64,000 nucleotides of DNA, from the NCBI GenBank assembly GCA_032433765.1, contig JAVIAB010000160.1:36254780-36318779 (forward strand), in the 5' to 3' direction. The notes under the pieces are model-generated. The model was not told where the DNA came from. It saw nothing but the letters and a program-made list of their open reading frames with translations, and searched no databases. Made by a program: the position numbers and the translations under genes. This DNA is from Megaustenia siamemsis (lineage: Eukaryota > Mollusca > Gastropoda > Stylommatophora > Ariophantidae). This document shows positions 2,875 through 19,124 of the stretch, piece after piece; the stretch's first letter is position 1; each line of letters opens with the position of its first letter.

Positions 2875-3952
2875 AAATGTATAAAGTTTGTTTCAGAGGG
2901 AGAGAGGGGTGATAGATAGAATGGGTTAAATAGCCTGGTTAGCTTTATTGTCCTTTAGTTTTAACCAGTGATAAAAGAATGTGTCTCCTATACAATATCT
3001 AATTTCGTCGACTCTGACCTGCTCACTACGTATCGACTGCACTAGTCAGTAGTCCTTCAGAAATCACAAGTAAACTCCAGAGATAGTATAACTCTCGTAT
3101 TTTCTAGTAAAAGTTATACGTTTAAATAACGCCGCATCACAATTTGCGACACAAATAGAGAATAAAACATGGCGGCTAACTCAAATATCTGGTAGCTGTT
3201 CCAAAATGACTTTTTAATCCAGCGTACAACTGAATCAGGGAATGTTTGTCATTCATGTCTACGGCGACGTAAGTCTGAAACAGGTGTCCGTGGCAGCCGG
3301 TGATTTATGTTCTGGAAATACAGACATTCACAAATGTGAGCAGTTATCATGAGAGAGTATACACAAATGTAGAAGGCTGTAGACAAACGTGTTTATTATG
3401 TGTAGGCCAAGCATTCCGTAACAATAATGAACACAGCTAATTTGTATTTATTCTGAATATATACAATATAATGTTAATATTATGGAGCAGTACTTTCGAG
3501 GAATATACTTTTAAGACAATGAATATAATTATTTCTGTTGATTTCTGCTGTAAGTACAACTTATTGATATCATTTTAAAATTTAAATTATATTATTACTA
3601 TTGTTATTATTTTTACTACTACTACAGATGTTAGTATAATTATTGCATAATTTGCAATTGATAATTCATTAGTACTGTTTTATTATTAGCCCTGTTTTTA
3701 ATGTTGTTATTTCAAGCGACTTATTATTCCGTTGATTAAACTAAATTAACTGATTTCAGAACAGTAGAAATAATGAACCAACACAAAAACATTAAGGAAA
3801 TCAGTTGAAAGTCATGATGATAAACCTACATTAGAATATCAAGGAATTCAGTTGAGATTTGTAATAGAGAATCAATATTTAAATAATATAAAGGAATTCA
3901 GTGGAGCGCTTTGAAAAAGAATGAACAGTTAAATGTGAAGAAATGTAATGCG
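2875..3952. other. No gene seen; AT-rich
   Basis: About 1.1 kb of mostly unique AT-rich sequence with short TTATTA runs around 3590-3690. A few ATGGCGG-type stretches (3170) are present but no open frame of useful length. I see nothing that can be named. Confidence 0.5.
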
Positions 3953-3954
3953 TC

Positions 3955-4205
3955 ATCATCATCATGTGCCATACCGGTTGGCGTAGGCGATCATGTCCTT
4001 CCACAATCTTCTATGTACAGTGCATCGTATCAGTTCTGTTGACTGTTTTCCATACCATGACACCAAGCTATCCAGTATTTTCTCTCTTTGTCGTCCGCGA
4101 TCTCTCTTTCCTTTTATTTTGCCAGTTATAACAAAAGTATTTCAACTTTCCTCGTCTCATGATGTGCCCGAAAAATGTTGATTGTTTCTTTCTGATGTTT
4201 TTAGT
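3955..4205 (-). mobile_element. LINE A copy 2, 3' end only
   Basis: Starts at low coordinates with CATCATCATCATGTGCC and the family A end block GGCGTAGGCGATCATGTCC on the plus strand. It continues about 250 bp into the reverse transcriptase tail before stopping abruptly near 4205. Severely 5'-truncated. Confidence 0.85.
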
Positions 4206-6204: not shown

Positions 6205-6207
<3 letters not shown>

Positions 6208-6212
6208 CTATT

Positions 6213-6734
6213 ACCCCACTTTACGACACCTCTATATTTTTCTCCTCTCTGGCCTGTTTCTTGCGCCTTTTGTGTGCACACGGACCTGTTTTTGGAAACT
6301 TCTGTTAAGGCATTCTGTGTGCGCACACTTTCACTTTTGTACACGCACATGCTCCACGTGCGCACTTCCTTTCTTTCAGAAGAAAGATTCTTCTTAGATC
6401 TTACAGGGAACTTTGTATTAACATTTTATTCTCCTGTACTTTTCATTTCTCTTTCAAATCCGATTTTTTTATTACTTATTTTTATTTTATTTTAAATAAA
6501 TATTTGTATTAATTTCACTGGTTTATCTGCGTGTTTTATCATCTGTTTAACTACGGATTAAGCAGATCTCTAATTTCTCATTACTTTAGCAACACGGACA
6601 TCATTATCATCATCATCATCAACATCATCATCATCATTGAGTGCCGTCTCCGCATCAAAGATTAGCTACCATGAAACGCCATTCTACGCAGACTCTTGCT
6701 TTGATGGTGCAGTTTTTCACAGGCTGATTTGTCC
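6213..6734. repeat. Left 522-bp direct repeat flanking the intact LINE
   Basis: Identical to 10785-11306 apart from three substitutions (6408, 6409, 6433) and no gaps: both ends give the same offset of 4572. It contains a (CAT)n stretch and, at 6599-6734, the antisense 3' end of a LINE B relic. That relic is cut at 6734 exactly where the LINE insertion starts, while the right-hand copy runs on into more of the same relic. This makes it a target-site duplication rather than an internal part of the element. Confidence 0.88.
6599..6734 (-). mobile_element. LINE B 3' end, interrupted copy
   Basis: Begins with ATCATCATTGAGTGCC and GCTACCATG, the family B terminal block on the opposite strand, preceded by a (CAT)n tail. 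It is interrupted by the LINE at 6735; the homologous sequence at 11171-11384 shows the continuation. Confidence 0.8.
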
Positions 6735-6900
6735 TCATCAAGGCCAGCTCCTTGTCGTGGGGATGGGGCTTAACAGTCACCAGGGACTGAAAACTAAGAC
6801 TGGCCAGGCCTTCCTACAACCGAGCAAGACCACAGTCTGCTCTAGCAAGTTCAAGTGCTGAAGTCGGAGGCAACCAGCCAAAAGGCGCACAACAATCAGG

Positions 6901-7074
6901 ATGCCACGCACTCAACGCATATGGAAGTATGTCTATAACCGCAAATCGATATGGCACTCGCCCTGTGATGGGCACTCAGGCAGGTGCAGCGCCGGGCCCT
7001 CAGCCTCGAAAGGGCCCAACCTCTATTACTGGATGTCCTTCTCAACCGCCCTGTGGAGTCAGGGGGCGAGAGAA
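6901..7074 (+). other. Small upstream ORF overlapping the LINE ORF start
   Basis: An ATG at 6901 opens a 57-codon frame that overlaps the start of the main ORF (6929) in another frame and stops at 7074. The ATG lies in a 5' block that is conserved in the truncated relative at 17.8 kb, but the peptide itself has no recognisable motif. It could influence initiation at the main ORF, or be chance. Confidence 0.25.
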
Positions 7075-10000
7075 TAGAGCTACTGGCCAATCCAAAATAA
7101 GACCACTAAAAATAATGCACTGGAATGCTGAAGGCATCAACAGCAAAAGAGATGGGTACAGTAAAAAGATAGAATTAGAAAATATCCTGCATGAAGAACA
7201 AATAAGCATATGCTGTTTGCAGGAAACCCATCTAAACAACGACATAGCCTTGAAGATTAGGGGATACCAGTGCTACCGATCTGACAGAATAAATAGACAA
7301 AAGGGTGGAATACTGACTCTTGTAAGGAACAACATTAATGCATGTCAGATTGAAGTGTATATGGATGGGGCGGAATATCAAATACTGCGCCTCAGGACAG
7401 GAAATACAGACTTCCATCTACTTAACTACTACTGTCCGAGTGACCGCCCACTAGCACTAGACACAATTACATTAAAAGAAAGAATAATTGTATGTGGAGA
7501 CTTTAACAGCCACTCACAGAGCTGGGGCTATGAACATATGGACAAGAGAGGTGAAGAGCTTGAAAATTGGCAGGATGACAATGGGCTTATACTATTAAAC
7601 CAGGCAACAGATCCACCAACATTCTACTCCAGATCATGGCATACCACATCTACACCAGACCTTGCTTTCCATTCACCAGACCTGGATTGGAATATCACAC
7701 GAATTGTTGGGAAACAACTTGGAGGCAGCGACCACCGACCAGTCTTTTTAGTGGTGCAAAATGAGGCCATCAGGGAGAGCAGCACTCTCTCCAGATGGAA
7801 TTACAAAAAGGCAGACTGGAAAATGTATCAACACTACACCAGTGTACTGACTAAAGATATAAATACAGATAGAGACATCAACAAAATAGTTGATGAATTC
7901 AGTAGACTAATAATACAAGCTGCCAGTGAAACAATACCTAGAGGGGCACGGAAACACTACAAACCATACTGGAGTAGTGAACTAGAGGAACTGCACAATG
8001 ACATGGAAACATCTCGAAAGCAAGCAGAAAATAACCCTTGCCAAGAACACCACAACAACTACCAGCATGCTAAAGCCAAATTTCAACAGGCTAAACTACA
8101 AGCCAGACGGAGAAGCTGGAAAGAGAAAACAGAGTCCTTGAATCTTGAACGAGACACAAGAAAAGTGTGGAAGCTTGTAAAACAGCTGAATGATGAGGGT
8201 ACAGAAAGGAACACCAAAATTACACTGAAGAAGGATGGAAACATTCTAACAGGTAAACATGCAGCAAATTACTTTGCAGACTCCTTTGCAAATGACAATA
8301 ATATTGAAATTAGCCTAGAAAAACGACAAGAGACCCGTCTAAAACAACAAAATGCAAGACAAGAAGAGACCACACATGAAGTCATGGAAACACCCATTAC
8401 ACAAAGAGAGCTAGAGCTGGCAATATCCAAATTAAAAATGAAAAAGTCACCAGGCAATGATGGAGTGTCCAATGAAATGATTAAGAACTTGGGAACTGCA
8501 GCTAAAGCAAAACTACTGCAGATCTACAACATTTGCTGGATCACAGGTAGAGTGCCACAGGCATGGAGAGAAGCAATTATGATACCATTACTAAAGCCAG
8601 GAAAAGATAGTTCAATGACATCCAGCTATAGACCAATCAGCCTTACAAGCTGTTTGTGTAAAACAATGGAACGTATAATCAATCTCAGACTGCAGTGGTA
8701 CCTGGAAAGTGAAAATCTCCTTGTCCCACAACAAGCAGGCTTTAGACAGTGTTACTCTACCGAAGATCAAGCAACCTATCTTTCCCAGGAAATCGAAGAT
8801 GCGTTTCAAGAAAAGAAACTGGTACTAGCAGCATGGATAGACCTAAAGAAAGCATTTGATAAGGTATGGAAGGAAGGGCTTCTGAAGAAACTGAGAAATT
8901 ATGGAGTAAATGGCAGGATGTACAAATGGGTCAAAGCATACCTGCATAACAGGAGAGCCAGAGTGCAACTGGATGGTCTTAAGAGTAAGAAGGTCTTATT
9001 GCGCCAGGGCGTTCCACAAGGAGGGGTACTATCTCCAACACTTTTTCTGATCTACATCAATGACCTAGTTACTGAACTACCACATGGCATCAAAGTGGCA
9101 ATGTATGCAGATGACTTGGTAATGTGGTGCACAGAGGAGTATGCAACAGTGGCCTCCAAATTGCTACAAAGAGCTATGAATGCACTGAATTCATGGACAA
9201 ATAGATGGTGTATCAGCATCAATACAGACAAATGCAGTACTACACTTTTCACACTCTCCCCAAAACAAAAAGCAGGAGCCATCTACATAAACAATGAGCC
9301 TGTGAAAGAAGACATACAAGCTACATATCTCGGAGTTACATTTGATAACAAACTATCTTGGAAACAGCAGATAAATAAGGCAACCCAAAAAGCAAGGAGA
9401 AAATTGGCTATTCTAAGAAAGTTGTGTGGAACCACATGGGGTGCGAGTGGGAAAATACTCAGTAAAGTTTACCAACAGAGTATACGCCCACATTTAGAAT
9501 ATGGATCATCCGCATGGTGCTCAGCATCAAACACCACATTGCAAGAACTGGATAAAGTACAAAACCAGGCACTTAGGGTCATCACAGGAGCAATGAAATC
9601 AACACCAATATTGGAGATGGAGAAATTGTGGAGGATACCAGCACTGAGAGAACGGAGGGACACAAAGGTGCTGATACAGGCAGAAAAATGTGTATGCATG
9701 CCGAGACATCCAATGAAGGACAGATTCCAAAATCTTGCATTGGGACGACTTAAGAGAAGCAGCTTTATCCACCAAGCCAAGCGTATTAGTAGACAAACAC
9801 CAGACATGCCAAGAGTTGTTAAACCCCTTCTGCCCATACCAGAACAGACTCCCTGGACAGATGAATCAGGATTATCAGTTCAAATACGGACAGAAGTGAA
9901 AGGAATAGTTGACAAAGAGGAACAAAATAGTCTACAGCGAAAAACAATAGCTCTCAGTTTCCTGGATGAAGAATACCCACAAGACCTATGGATTCGTGTG

Positions 10001-10753
10001 TACACAGATGGATCAGCACAGAATGCAGTAAAGAATGGGGGAGCAGGTGCATATATAGAGTACCCAAATAACACTAGGGATATGGATAAAATAGCAACAG
10101 GGAAATATTGTCACAATTATGATGCAGAAATACAAGCAATAAAGTTGGCAATAGAAAAACTGCTGAACAGTAATCTTAGCCCACAGCCTGTAGTGTTTTT
10201 GACAGATGCAAGATCAGTACTCCAGGCACTACAATCCAGAAAATTACCCCATCTGCAGACCTTATTGACTGAACTCTGCAAGCACCACAGGGTTGCCCTG
10301 CAGTGGATCCCGTCTCACTGTGGAATACCAGGAAATGAGAAAGCAGATCAGTTGGCAAAGGAAGGTTCAACAGGCACACAACTAGATACACCAGTTACAT
10401 ACCATCATAAGAAACAGAGAATCAAATCAATCAGAGGACCACAAGCCCCAAATCAGGATGCCTTTCATAATATGAATAGATATGAACAAGTTATCATTAT
10501 ACGCCTAAGAACAGGACACAATCGACTCCATAGTCACATGTATACAAAATTCAAGATCGGCACATCAACTACTTGTACATGTGGACAGGCACCCCAGACT
10601 GCTGAACACATACTTCAAGACTGCACTGAATATAGTAGACTGAGGAAAATCCATTGGCCCATAGATACAACACTACAGACAAAACTATATGGGCCACTGC
10701 AAGAATTACAAAAGACAGTAAAATTTATACAGGAAACGACATTGCAGATATAG
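6929..10753 (+). CDS. LINE polyprotein: APE endonuclease, reverse transcriptase, RNase H
   Basis: 1274 codons without interruption. After a proline- and glycine-rich N-terminus (about 1-58), an APE-type endonuclease spans about 59-275: HWNAEGI, QETHL (near 98), GDFNSH (near 190), TPDL and GGSDHRPV (near 265), so the catalytic Glu, Asp and His are all present. The reverse transcriptase runs from about 500 to 800: YRPISLTS (565), DLKKAFDKVW (637), RQGVPQGGVLSP (693) and YADDLVMW (725) with both catalytic aspartates. RNase H follows at about 1020-1150: YTDGSA, AEIQAI, TDARSVLQ and IPSHCGIPGNEKADQLA, keeping the D-E-D-D set. The C-terminus has RLRTGHNRLHSHMY and a CTCG...HILQDC knuckle near 1217-1233. 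It nicks target DNA and copies its own RNA there. The first ATG of this frame is 6929. Everything needed for target-primed reverse transcription appears intact; what is missing is an ORF1 nucleic-acid chaperone. Confidence 0.93.
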   Translation: MSITANRYGTRPVMGTQAGAAPGPQPRKGPTSITGCPSQPPCGVRGRENRATGQSKIRPLKIMHWNAEGINSKRDGYSKKIELENILHEEQISICCLQETHLNNDIALKIRGYQCYRSDRINRQKGGILTLVRNNINACQIEVYMDGAEYQILRLRTGNTDFHLLNYYCPSDRPLALDTITLKERIIVCGDFNSHSQSWGYEHMDKRGEELENWQDDNGLILLNQATDPPTFYSRSWHTTSTPDLAFHSPDLDWNITRIVGKQLGGSDHRPVFLVVQNEAIRESSTLSRWNYKKADWKMYQHYTSVLTKDINTDRDINKIVDEFSRLIIQAASETIPRGARKHYKPYWSSELEELHNDMETSRKQAENNPCQEHHNNYQHAKAKFQQAKLQARRRSWKEKTESLNLERDTRKVWKLVKQLNDEGTERNTKITLKKDGNILTGKHAANYFADSFANDNNIEISLEKRQETRLKQQNARQEETTHEVMETPITQRELELAISKLKMKKSPGNDGVSNEMIKNLGTAAKAKLLQIYNICWITGRVPQAWREAIMIPLLKPGKDSSMTSSYRPISLTSCLCKTMERIINLRLQWYLESENLLVPQQAGFRQCYSTEDQATYLSQEIEDAFQEKKLVLAAWIDLKKAFDKVWKEGLLKKLRNYGVNGRMYKWVKAYLHNRRARVQLDGLKSKKVLLRQGVPQGGVLSPTLFLIYINDLVTELPHGIKVAMYADDLVMWCTEEYATVASKLLQRAMNALNSWTNRWCISINTDKCSTTLFTLSPKQKAGAIYINNEPVKEDIQATYLGVTFDNKLSWKQQINKATQKARRKLAILRKLCGTTWGASGKILSKVYQQSIRPHLEYGSSAWCSASNTTLQELDKVQNQALRVITGAMKSTPILEMEKLWRIPALRERRDTKVLIQAEKCVCMPRHPMKDRFQNLALGRLKRSSFIHQAKRISRQTPDMPRVVKPLLPIPEQTPWTDESGLSVQIRTEVKGIVDKEEQNSLQRKTIALSFLDEEYPQDLWIRVYTDGSAQNAVKNGGAGAYIEYPNNTRDMDKIATGKYCHNYDAEIQAIKLAIEKLLNSNLSPQPVVFLTDARSVLQALQSRKLPHLQTLLTELCKHHRVALQWIPSHCGIPGNEKADQLAKEGSTGTQLDTPVTYHHKKQRIKSIRGPQAPNQDAFHNMNRYEQVIIIRLRTGHNRLHSHMYTKFKIGTSTTCTCGQAPQTAEHILQDCTEYSRLRKIHWPIDTTLQTKLYGPLQELQKTVKFIQETTLQI

Positions 10754-10784
10754 ACAATACTTCAGGCGAACGAAAGATAGATAG

Positions 10785-11306
10785 ACCCCACTTTACGACA
10801 CCTCTATATTTTTCTCCTCTCTGGCCTGTTTCTTGCGCCTTTTGTGTGCACACGGACCTGTTTTTGGAAACTTCTGTTAAGGCATTCTGTGTGCGCACAC
10901 TTTCACTTTTGTACACGCACATGCTCCACGTGCGCACTTCCTTTCTTTCAGAAGAAAGATTCTTCTTAGATCTTACAGGTTACTTTGTATTAACATTTTA
11001 TTCTTCTGTACTTTTCATTTCTCTTTCAAATCCGATTTTTTTATTACTTATTTTTATTTTATTTTAAATAAATATTTGTATTAATTTCACTGGTTTATCT
11101 GCGTGTTTTATCATCTGTTTAACTACGGATTAAGCAGATCTCTAATTTCTCATTACTTTAGCAACACGGACATCATTATCATCATCATCATCAACATCAT
11201 CATCATCATTGAGTGCCGTCTCCGCATCAAAGATTAGCTACCATGAAACGCCATTCTACGCAGACTCTTGCTTTGATGGTGCAGTTTTTCACAGGCTGAT
11301 TTGTCC
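10785..11306. repeat. Right 522-bp direct repeat flanking the intact LINE
   Basis: The mate of 6213-6734. It begins directly after the GATAGATAG tail of the LINE and ends inside the LINE B relic, which continues uninterrupted into 11307-11384. The uninterrupted continuation identifies this side as the original target sequence. Confidence 0.88.
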
Positions 11307-11384
11307 ATCTTTTCATGTTACTCATCCATGTTAGTCTTGGTCTGCCTCTCTTTCTTATACCTTGTATTTTCCCTTTCCAATAAT
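11171..11384 (-). mobile_element. LINE B 3' end, continuous copy
   Basis: Antisense family B terminus: plus-strand TGAGTGCCGTCTCCGC, then TTACTCATCCATGTTAG and GTCTGCCTCT, which are the complement of the GRGRPRLTWM tail. It stops near 11384, where a 23-bp minisatellite starts. Confidence 0.8.
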
Positions 11385-12235
11385 GGTGGAGATATCTCAC
11401 AAATAATGGTGGAGATATTTCTCGAATAAAGGTGGAGAGATCTCACAAATAAAGGTGGAAAGATCTCACAAATAAAGGTGGAGAGATCTCACAAATAAAG
11501 GTGGAGAGATCTCACAAATAAAGATGGAGAGATCTCACAAATAATGGTGGATATATCTCACAAATAAAGGTGGATATATCTCACAAATAAAGGTGGAGAC
11601 ATCTCACAAATAAAGGTGGATATATCTCACAAATAAAGGTGGAGAGATCTCACAAATAATGGTGAAGGTATCTCACAAATAAAGGTGGAGAGATCTCACA
11701 AATAAAAGTGGAGGTATCTCACAAATAATGGTGGATATCTCACAAATAAAGGTGGTTATATCTCTTAAATAATGGTGGATATATCTCACAAATAATGGTG
11801 GAGAGATCTCACAAATAATGTTGGAGAGATCTCACAAATAATGGTGGAGATATCTCACAAATAATGGTGGAGAGATCTCACAAATAAAGGTGGAGAGATC
11901 TCACAAATAATGGTGGAGAGATCTCACAAATAATGGTGGAGAGATCTCACAAATAAAGGTGGAGAGATCTCACAAATAATGGTGGAGAGATCTCACAAAT
12001 AAAGGTGGAGAGATCTCAGAAATAAAGGTGGATATATCTCACAAATAAAGGTGGAGAGATCTCACAAATAATGGTGGAGATATCTCACAAATAAAGGTGG
12101 AGGTATCTCACAAATAATGGTGGATATCTCACAAATAAAGGTGGTTATATCTCTTAAATAATGGTGGATATATCTCACAAATAATGGTGGAGAAATCTAT
12201 CTCAACATTAAAGTGGAGATATCTCATTAATAGTG
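11385..12235. repeat. Minisatellite, 23-bp unit, about 37 copies
   Basis: Units begin GGTGGAGAGATCTCACAAAT. Each carries the palindrome GAGATCTC or a variant with ATATCTC. AATAAAGG and AATAATGG versions alternate irregularly. A block around 11710-11790 recurs at 12105-12185, showing duplication inside the array. It starts exactly at the truncated end of a LINE B relic. Confidence 0.93.
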
Positions 12236-12240
12236 GTGGC

Positions 12241-13065
12241 GATACTTCACAAAAAGGGTGGAAATATCTCACAAATAATTGTTGGTATGTCTCGTAAATG
12301 AAGGTGGAATCTATTTATATCTTTAAAATAAGGGATTAAATATCCAAATGGAATGTTTAGGACGAACCTTGGGACCTCAGTAATGGAACAAATCAGTAAT
12401 GCATGTTATTTGTTCAGGTCTGGGTGTGTATGTGTTATGTGCAGCCATTCCTCCCCTTTTGTACTATTCTTCTCATATCCAATATTGTTCACCAGAATTA
12501 CCAGAGTCTGTTGCATGAATTATGACAACGGGGAAGGAAGACATGTTTATGTAGCTAAGTTATCATAAAATAGTTAAAACTTGACAAGTGATGCAATGTG
12601 TATCCTTAACACTACAGAAATGTTCAACTAGAACTTAGAAGACGGAGAAACGAGCGCCGTAGCGAGGTGGTAACGCGTTAAATAGGCAATGAAATGAATA
12701 TTGGTTCTAACGCACTCTTGCGATTCCTGGTCAACATACTGAAAAAGATAAGAATATCTGTATCACTGAGTTGGGTAAAAGTATATTACAATGAGGACGA
12801 GCACTGACCTCATCACATCTTTGCCCAGTACAGTGACATGTTATATCTGACTCTTTAGCTCTATATCAGTCACGAGACATAACATTTAGTTACAAGTAGA
12901 GGAAAACGATTTAACGGGGTGTTGAAGGGGATGTGTTTTCAATTAATGATGTTAGTGTAACAATGCGTCAGCAGGCTTCTCGTCCTGCTATTTCAAATGA
13001 TGTTTGTACCTAGGACATATCTTGGAATTTACATTATAATAAGTGTTGGAAATATATTAACTAAT
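12241..13065. other. No gene seen; possible SINE head relic
   Basis: Unique-looking sequence. Around 12648-12690 GCCGTAGCGAGGTGGTAACGCG resembles a tRNA-type A-box region but no matching B-box follows at the right distance, so a SINE is not supported. No exon was recognised. Confidence 0.4.
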
Positions 13066-17590: not shown

Positions 17591-17766
17591 ATCTTGTGTT
17601 CTCGAAACGATTATTGAAGGCTCGTTGTGTTGTGCTTTGATCTTTCTGCCTAGTCATGTGGTCAAACCATTTTATCTGTAGTTTTTTTTTACTGAGTTCT
17701 TCATTTCTGATCTTGTCTCTCAGGCTGTTTCTTGTCATTCGTCTAACATTGGCGTGAGTGCGTGGC
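17591..17766 (-). mobile_element. LINE F tail fragment
   Basis: The minus strand reads VRRMTRNSLRDKIRNEEL, KWFDHMTR, then GHPQKRWIDGI. This is a second, different reverse transcriptase tail joined head-to-tail with LINE C. The join at about 17590 has no tail sequence, suggesting deletion or insertion of one into the other. Confidence 0.65.
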
Positions 17767-18077
17767 ATCCTGATTGTTGTAGTGCACCTTTTGGCTAGTC
17801 GCCCCCGACCTCAGCACTTAAACTTGCTAGAGAAGACTGTGGCCTTGCTCTGGTGTGAAGATCGGCACCTCAACTACTTGTACATGTGGACAGGAGCCCC
17901 AGACTGCTCAACACATACTTCAAGCCTATACTGAATATAGTAGACTGAGGAAAATCCATTGGCCCATAGATACAACACTACAGACAAAACTATATGGTCC
18001 ACTGCAAGAATTACAAAAGACAGTAACATTGATACCGGAAACGACATTGACACATATAGACAATACTCTGGGCGAAA
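17767..18077 (+). mobile_element. 5'-inverted, internally deleted copy of the intact LINE family
   Basis: The right part (17858-18077) is 80-codon-scale sequence almost identical to 10556-10775 of the intact LINE: KIGTSTTCTCGQ, HILQ, SRLRKIHWPIDTT. The left part (17767-17857) is the reverse complement of the leader of the same LINE (about 6811-6912), including GATGCCACGCACTCA. So the 5' leader is inverted next to the 3' end, with about 3.6 kb missing. This is the structure expected from twin priming during insertion, as known for mammalian L1. It runs directly into the (GATA)n array. Confidence 0.8.

Positions 18078-19124
<1,047 letters not shown>

What the first reader, a model, noticed from the sequence alone, without database searches (positions are those of the whole stretch)
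6213..11306. Intact LINE flanked by 522-bp direct repeats: an exceptionally long target-site duplication
The two flanks match at 519 of 522 positions with no gaps, and the duplicated sequence is demonstrably target DNA because it contains half of an older antisense LINE B relic that is cut on one side and continues on the other. Typical LINE duplications are 7-20 bp. Either this family makes widely spaced nicks, or repair copied the gap.
Basis: seen in the sequence. Interest (0 to 1): 0.85.

Follow-up and report, generated by a model that had tools for sequence, protein, structure and literature searches.

The report
Jumping gene with unusually long duplication
A recently inserted, intact mobile element duplicated about 520 bases of its landing site instead of its usual 11 to 16; a few of its sister copies did the same, one over about four thousand bases, a rare insertion outcome already known from human cells.

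Summary
In detail: 6213-6734 and 10785-11306 match at 519 of 522 positions and abut both ends of an intact LINE. The duplicated stretch was single-copy target DNA: one old repeat runs through its left edge and another through its right edge.

The window's genome is held (2.59 Gb), so I examined the 40 full-length copies that one search listed, 39 independent insertions. Thirty-five have short duplications (34 of 11-16 bp, one ambiguous). Three have long ones: 393 bp, about 653 bp, and about 4.1-4.5 kb. One has none. The long duplication is not the family's rule, but it recurs.

First-strand nicking looks normal at the window (TT^A, as at 13 of 34 short sites). The unusual step is the second-strand break, hundreds to thousands of bases away. 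Human L1 shows this in at most 10% of HeLa insertions and often in repair-deficient cells (PMC5223499). It is a new member of a known kind.

One oddity remains: the target copies differ more than the element's youth predicts (7 differences at three loci; about 0.6 expected). In one long case, 29 extra bases match the sequence just upstream of a sister element 66 kb away.

The parts
6205..6508 (.). Old interspersed repeat that crosses the left edge of the duplicated stretch (6212/6213), showing that left flank and target were continuous before insertion
   Evidence: L003 (88%) and L020 (86%) align from 6205, 8 bases before the edge
6213..6734 (.). Left copy of the duplicated target DNA (T1); 6733-6734 CC is shared with the element's start
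   Evidence: 519 of 522 identical to 10785-11306; carries the base of relatives L003 and/or L020 at all three differences
6733..6806 (+). Possible HDV-like self-cleaving ribozyme fold starting at the first base of the element (pattern match only)
   Evidence: descriptor with P3 fits 2 of 127,810 start positions in the window, this one included; the descriptor was written after inspecting this sequence. Against: no Rfam match and an ordinary non-pseudoknot fold, z 0.11
6733..10784 (+). Full-length LINE, about 4052 bp, ending in a GATA-repeat tail
   Evidence: 20 fetched copies align end to end at 99.4-99.98%
6929..10753 (+). Single intact ORF, 1274 aa: endonuclease, reverse transcriptase (YADD at 726), RNase H
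10785..11306 (.). Right copy of the duplicated target DNA (T2)
   Evidence: carries a base found in neither relative at all three differences
11180..11382 (-). Older LINE relic in antisense that crosses the right edge of T2 (11306/11307), showing that target and right flank were continuous; its left-hand half is also in T1 (about 6608-6734)
   Evidence: 6 window places and 10 places in fetched loci cross the edge. The label RTE-like in my notes is recalled from the RKRGRPRLTW-type motif, not from a call

Best explanation
A LINE of an endonuclease + reverse transcriptase + RNase H family inserted once by target-primed reverse transcription. Its endonuclease nicked the bottom strand at a normal TT^A site (6212/6213) and cDNA was made up to the element's usual 5' end. 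Instead of the usual second cut 11-14 bp away, the top strand was broken about 520 bp downstream and the cDNA end was joined there. Filling in both long single strands made two copies of the 520 bp. Shown: the structure, the ancestral continuity on both sides, the fit of the first nick to the family's motif, and the rarity and recurrence in the family. Inferred: that the distant break was a stray nick, gap or replication end rather than a cut by the element's own enzyme, and how the ends were joined.
For: Both edges of the duplication coincide with the two ends of the element. One copy of the stretch existed before: repeats run through both edges. Short-duplication sisters show the usual step: 34 of 11-16 bp, so a duplication ending at both LINE ends is what insertion makes. 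First nick: TT before the nick at 14 of 34 short sites (9.8% expected, p = 1.5e-6), and the window and C1 sites fit. Recurrence: 3 of 39 other independent insertions have duplications of 393 bp, 653 bp and about 4.1-4.5 kb. At C90 the target reads like the element's start for about eight bases at the joint, as expected if the cDNA end annealed there. Precedent: PMC5223499 (passages, Discussion).
Against: T1 and T2 differ more than one event plus ageing predicts (7 differences against about 0.6 expected). No copy without the LINE and with a single T could be examined. No duplication between 17 and 392 bp was seen among 39 (L073 ambiguous), which a purely random distant break need not produce. 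At the window the joint shares only CC, which also begins 39 of 40 sister copies, so it says little about joining.
Confidence: 0.85

Rival explanations
1. Same insertion, but the two target copies came from different DNA molecules (homologous chromosomes) or one was made by an error-prone polymerase, so they differed from birth. This is a variant of the best explanation, not exclusive of it.
For: Differences 3 in 522, 0 in 653 and 4 in 393 bp, against 2 private changes in about 9,901 bp of the same three LINEs; conditional binomial 0.001, or 0.003 if the adjacent GA/TT pair counts once (650 used for the 653-bp pair). In the window all three changes are in T2.
Against: The 653-bp pair has none. 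Later gene conversion or crossing-over with LINE-free alleles would also explain it. Small numbers.
Confidence: 0.2
2. The 522 bp was already a tandem pair and the LINE landed exactly on the joint without a duplication of its own.
For: The copies are 0.6% different, so the pair could be older than the LINE.
Against: Needs an exact hit on one joint and the absence of the usual 11-16 bp duplication, and the same coincidence at three more loci. One duplication-free copy in 39 exists, so such insertions are rare.
Confidence: 0.05
3. Two allelic LINE insertions about 520 bp apart, followed by a crossover inside the LINE.
For: Would explain differences between T1 and T2.
Against: Needs two independent insertions of a rare element within 0.4-4.5 kb on different homologs, at four loci.
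Confidence: 0.02
4. Assembly duplication.
For: Reads were not available; the LINE copies are nearly identical and could confuse an assembler.
Against: The joint between the LINE's 3' end and the start of T would exist in neither allele of a normal insertion, so joining haplotypes wrongly cannot make it. T1 and T2 differ at 2 of the 3 long loci compared base by base; at the fourth the searched end matched at 92-98%. The window has no N.
Confidence: 0.03

Closest known systems
Large target-site duplications of human L1 (PMC5223499; passages, Discussion)
   Same: An otherwise normal LINE insertion flanked by hundreds to thousands of bases of duplicated target; a minority outcome in repair-proficient cells (over 100 bp never above 10% in HeLa); explained there by a distant second nick
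   Different: Here it is a natural set of copies in an assembled animal genome and a different LINE family; no link to nucleotide excision repair was tested
Fixed staggers of other LINEs (introduction of PMC6895275, passages; R1 in PMC2718515, passages)
   Same: Duplication length set by the distance between first- and second-strand cleavage; R1 mostly 14 bp, R9 126 bp as quoted
   Different: Those are typical values of a family; here the family's value is 11-16 bp and the long class is an exception
Ingi-like LINEs of gastropods (PMC11203168, passages) and L1Tc/ingi of trypanosomatids (PMC4035085, abstract and outline)
   Same: Ingi is reported as numerous in several gastropods; L1Tc/ingi elements carry an HDV-like ribozyme in a conserved region. 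The single-ORF architecture with endonuclease, RT and RNase H is what I recall for ingi
   Different: Clade not tested by a tree; the label rests on recall and on the nearest named relatives being gastropod

Membership tests
LINE inserted by target-primed reverse transcription | ORF with endonuclease and reverse transcriptase, no LTRs | tested here: met
   Pfam matches. The flanking 522-bp repeats are not LTRs: other copies do not carry them
LINE inserted by target-primed reverse transcription | Short target-site duplications at the family's insertions | tested here: met
   35 of 39 other independent insertions, 34 of them 11-16 bp
LINE inserted by target-primed reverse transcription | Preferred first-strand nick site | tested here: met
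   TT before the nick at 14 of 34 sites, p = 1.5e-6
Long target-site duplication as in human L1 | Duplicated stretch is former single-copy target and ends at both element ends | tested here: met
   Window. Continuity before insertion was not checked for the other three long loci
Long target-site duplication as in human L1 | LINE-free allele with one copy | not testable with these tools
   One assembly only
Long target-site duplication as in human L1 | Dependence on nucleotide excision repair | not testable with these tools
   Needs cell experiments
Ingi clade | Reverse transcriptase groups with ingi in a tree | not tested
   No reference set of named clades was at hand
HDV-like ribozyme | Nested double pseudoknot starting at the first base | tested here: inconclusive
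   Pattern fits, but no Rfam match and no covariation data

The most novel reading that the evidence does not exclude
Long duplications mark a distinct way of finishing LINE insertion, in which the left and right target copies come from different DNA molecules (homologous chromosomes) or from error-prone copying, so that a LINE insertion acts as an unequal exchange and duplicates up to kilobases of host DNA.
Probability: 0.2. Interest if true: 0.65.

Novelty: new member of a known kind. Interest (0 to 1): 0.4.

Why it matters
How LINEs cut and join the second strand is poorly understood. A young family with dozens of near-identical full-length copies gives a natural, countable record: a tight 11-16 bp class and a rare 0.4-4.5 kb class, with nothing clearly between in this sample. 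That helps to separate the element's own second cut from a fallback, in an animal genome rather than in repair-deficient cultured cells, and shows LINE insertions duplicating kilobases of flanking DNA.

Tried and rejected
Family-wide wide nicks: rejected, 35 of 39 are short. Insertion into a prior tandem pair, double insertion with crossover, and assembly error: see rivals.

The extra 11 and 29 bases between T1 and LINE in two long cases were first taken for end-joining filler. The 29 bases proved to be the sequence just upstream of a sister element 66 kb away, so that reading was dropped for that case. For the 11 bases no second exact match joined to an element start was found. The Fisher value (2 of 3 against 0 of 35) is not used: a copy with extra 5' bases and a short duplication would not have been scored as short.

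My notes hold errors that this report corrects: entry 2 says that the copies at L037 differ by 0.6% (the mismatches are all in the GATA tail; 653 bases are identical) and that 18 of 20 were short (19 of 20, 18 independent sites); entry 3 says 422 bp at C1 (393 bp plus 29 extra bases); entry 4 counts 1851 bp of the C1 LINE (1801 were covered); entry 6 says nine shared bases at C90 (about eight, since that copy lacks one C). One search's binomial used 1851; one search repeats it with 1801.

Rfam gave nothing at the element's 5' end. Protein search gave relatives but no clade name. Copies L004-L019, found by their 3' ends, were not used for the tally; the minus-strand ones were mishandled and several reach beyond the fetched stretch. 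The first-nick table includes one faulty row (L073) and one duplicate site (L033); one search drops both. Paper searches listed no report that I recognised as such duplications in this LINE family; most subscription papers are not held, and the older L1 papers cited inside PMC5223499 were not read.

Full report
Observation. The two flanking repeats 6213-6734 and 10785-11306 are 522 bp, ungapped, with three mismatches. Between them lies a full-length LINE with one intact ORF of 1274 aa carrying endonuclease, reverse transcriptase and RNase H domains. The best matches among solved structures by sequence are human L1 ORF2 chains. The window lies at C155:36254780-36318779 of a 2.59-Gb assembly in 155 contigs, and among the matches scored there the 522-bp stretch is at 99% or better only here, twice. 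No tool names the host. The named protein relatives listed are from gastropods, Bradybaena similaris (75% identity over 76% of the query, and a second protein at 52%) and Littorina saxatilis (46-57%); 322 proteins were found and 120 listed, most without a name.

The repeat is target DNA. An old interspersed repeat runs through the left edge of T1 in two other copies, with 8 aligned bases beyond the edge (L003, L020). An older antisense LINE relic runs through the right edge of T2 in 6 other window places and in 10 places in fetched loci. The order before insertion was therefore left flank - T - right flank with one T. At the three T1/T2 differences L003 and L020 carry T2's base in none of six comparisons and T1's base in five of six, so T2 is the changed copy.

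Element ends. A search with the first 501 bp scored the best 40 of 1356 candidates; all 40 listed are 100% identical over that stretch, and the list is a lower bound. I read 20 whole with about 3-kb flanks and the flanks of the other 20. Of the 40, 39 have CC before TCATCAAGG; the C90 copy has a single C. The 20 read whole end in GATA repeats. The window copy has one private change in 4050 bp among 21 aligned copies, so the insertion is young.

How long are duplications in this family? All 40 listed copies were examined; L032 and L033 share one site, leaving 39 independent insertions, the window not counted. Thirty-five have short duplications: 34 measure 11 bp (10), 12 (14), 13 (6), 14 (3) or 16 (1); the thirty-fifth, L073, sits in a tandem repeat where 29 bases match in the 33 or so read, so its length is ambiguous. 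Three are long. L037 (C100:30.51 Mb) has 653 identical bases on both sides; its T1 is followed by 11 extra bases of unknown origin. The copy at C1:37580295 has 393 bp with 4 mismatches. At the copy C90:5267506, 1041 bp of 3' flank occur again, identical, 8586 bp upstream, and the 5' flank occurs again downstream (92%, in tandem-repeat sequence; 98% over 108 bases at the end). By coordinates this gives T1 of about 4.5 kb and T2 of about 4.1 kb; the full stretches were not read, and the 2.5 kb of 5' flank that I did read showed no match to the 3' flank, as expected for a longer duplication. One copy (C51:33337163) has no duplication: no match in 1.2 kb of 5' flank, and no second nearby copy of either flank was listed. 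With the window 4 of 40 are long; without it 3 of 39 (7.7%, 95% interval 1.6-21%). No duplication between 17 and 392 bp was seen, L073 aside. The sample is the search tool's best-scoring list, not a random draw, and for 8 of the short copies only about 35 bases of 5' flank and 55-100 of 3' flank were read.

First nick. The two bases before the duplication are TT in 14 of 34 usable short sites (9.8% expected from the window, p = 1.5e-6), and TT^A in 13 of 34. The A may be tail. The window site (TATCTATT^ACCCC) and the C1 site (CCCTTTT^AACGA) fit; L037 lies in a TA repeat and was not informative, and the C90 site was not read. The first step thus looks like ordinary endonuclease action; the unusual step is where the top strand is broken.

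The 5' joints. At C90 the target itself reads about eight bases like the element's start (CTCATCAA): T2 and most repeat relatives (38 of 40 non-self rows listed) match the query up to base 108 or beyond of 111, seven bases into TCATCAAGGC (identities 92-98%, so single bases may differ). This suggests that the cDNA end annealed there. In the window only CC is shared. At C1, the 29 bases between T1 and LINE occur exactly once elsewhere in the genome, directly upstream of another start of the same LINE on the opposite strand 66 kb away (19 bases of that element were read). This is a 5' transduction and points to that copy as the parent, or to a shared parent.

Divergence of the copies. T1/T2 differences are 3, 0 and 4 in 522, 653 and 393 bp. 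Private LINE changes are 1 in 4050, 0 in 4050 and 1 in 1801 bp (1300 read, 501). Under one clock about 0.6 differences were expected in the T copies, two lineages counted; seven were seen (conditional binomial 0.001; 0.003 if the adjacent GA/TT pair counts once, with 650 for 653). Error-prone fill-in, use of the homologous chromosome, or later exchange with LINE-free alleles would each explain it. I cannot choose between them, and the 653-bp pair shows none.

Mechanism. One insertion event: normal first nick and cDNA, then a top-strand break hundreds to thousands of bases downstream in place of the normal cut, joining of the cDNA end there, and fill-in. This is what has been proposed for human L1: in NER-deficient cells the median duplication was 1495 bp, while in HeLa cells duplications over 100 bp never exceeded 10% of events (PMC5223499, passages, Discussion; in complemented cells 3 of 9 were over 100 bp). 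A structural study argues that the L1 target architecture may remove the need for a second nick and that duplication length would also depend on unpairing of the neighbouring duplex (PMC10830416, passages). The introduction of PMC6895275 (passages) quotes staggers from 2 bp to 126 bp across LINEs, with 10-20 bp the norm. R1 elements mostly make 14-bp duplications with imprecise second-strand priming (PMC2718515, passages). [quoted passage not shown] In long-read human data most mobile-element insertions have 10-20 bp (PMC12350158, passages).

Assembly error cannot be excluded without reads but is unlikely. The joint between the LINE's 3' end and the start of T exists in neither allele of a normal insertion, so a wrong joining of haplotypes could not make it, and the pattern recurs at four loci.

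Verdict. A well-defined long target-site duplication, the rare mode of a family that normally makes 11-16 bp. It is a new natural example, in another LINE family, of something known from human L1.

Noticed in passing
6733-6806: The first 74 bases of the LINE can be drawn as an HDV-like ribozyme (P1 CCTCATC/GATGGGG at the very first base, P2 GGCCAG/CTGGCC, P3, P4, joining strand with CTAAG); pattern only, no Rfam match.
   Followed up: partly
G000:C1:37513888 and C1:37580264-37580292 (L090, L079): 29 bases upstream of one LINE copy reappear at the 5' end of another 66 kb away: a 5' transduction that links a copy to its likely parent.
   Followed up: yes
17755-18091: A 5'-inverted truncated copy of the same LINE: LINE bases 81-179 reversed, joined to 3818-4050 forward, as expected from twin priming.
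   Followed up: no
about 17926-19000: A long array with 8-bp spacing begins inside or next to that copy's tail; it may be an expansion of the GATA tail.
   Followed up: no
L032 and L033 (C101:30.51 Mb and 29.33 Mb): The same LINE insertion with the same 30-base flanks on both sides at two places 1.2 Mb apart: a later segmental duplication.
   Followed up: no
11382-12330: A minisatellite of about 23-base units, with GGTGGAGAGATCTCACAAATAA-like text, lies just right of the right copy (read).
   Followed up: no
C51:33337163 (L065, L066, L083): A full-length copy with no target-site duplication at all; target deletion or recombination between copies are possible.
   Followed up: partly
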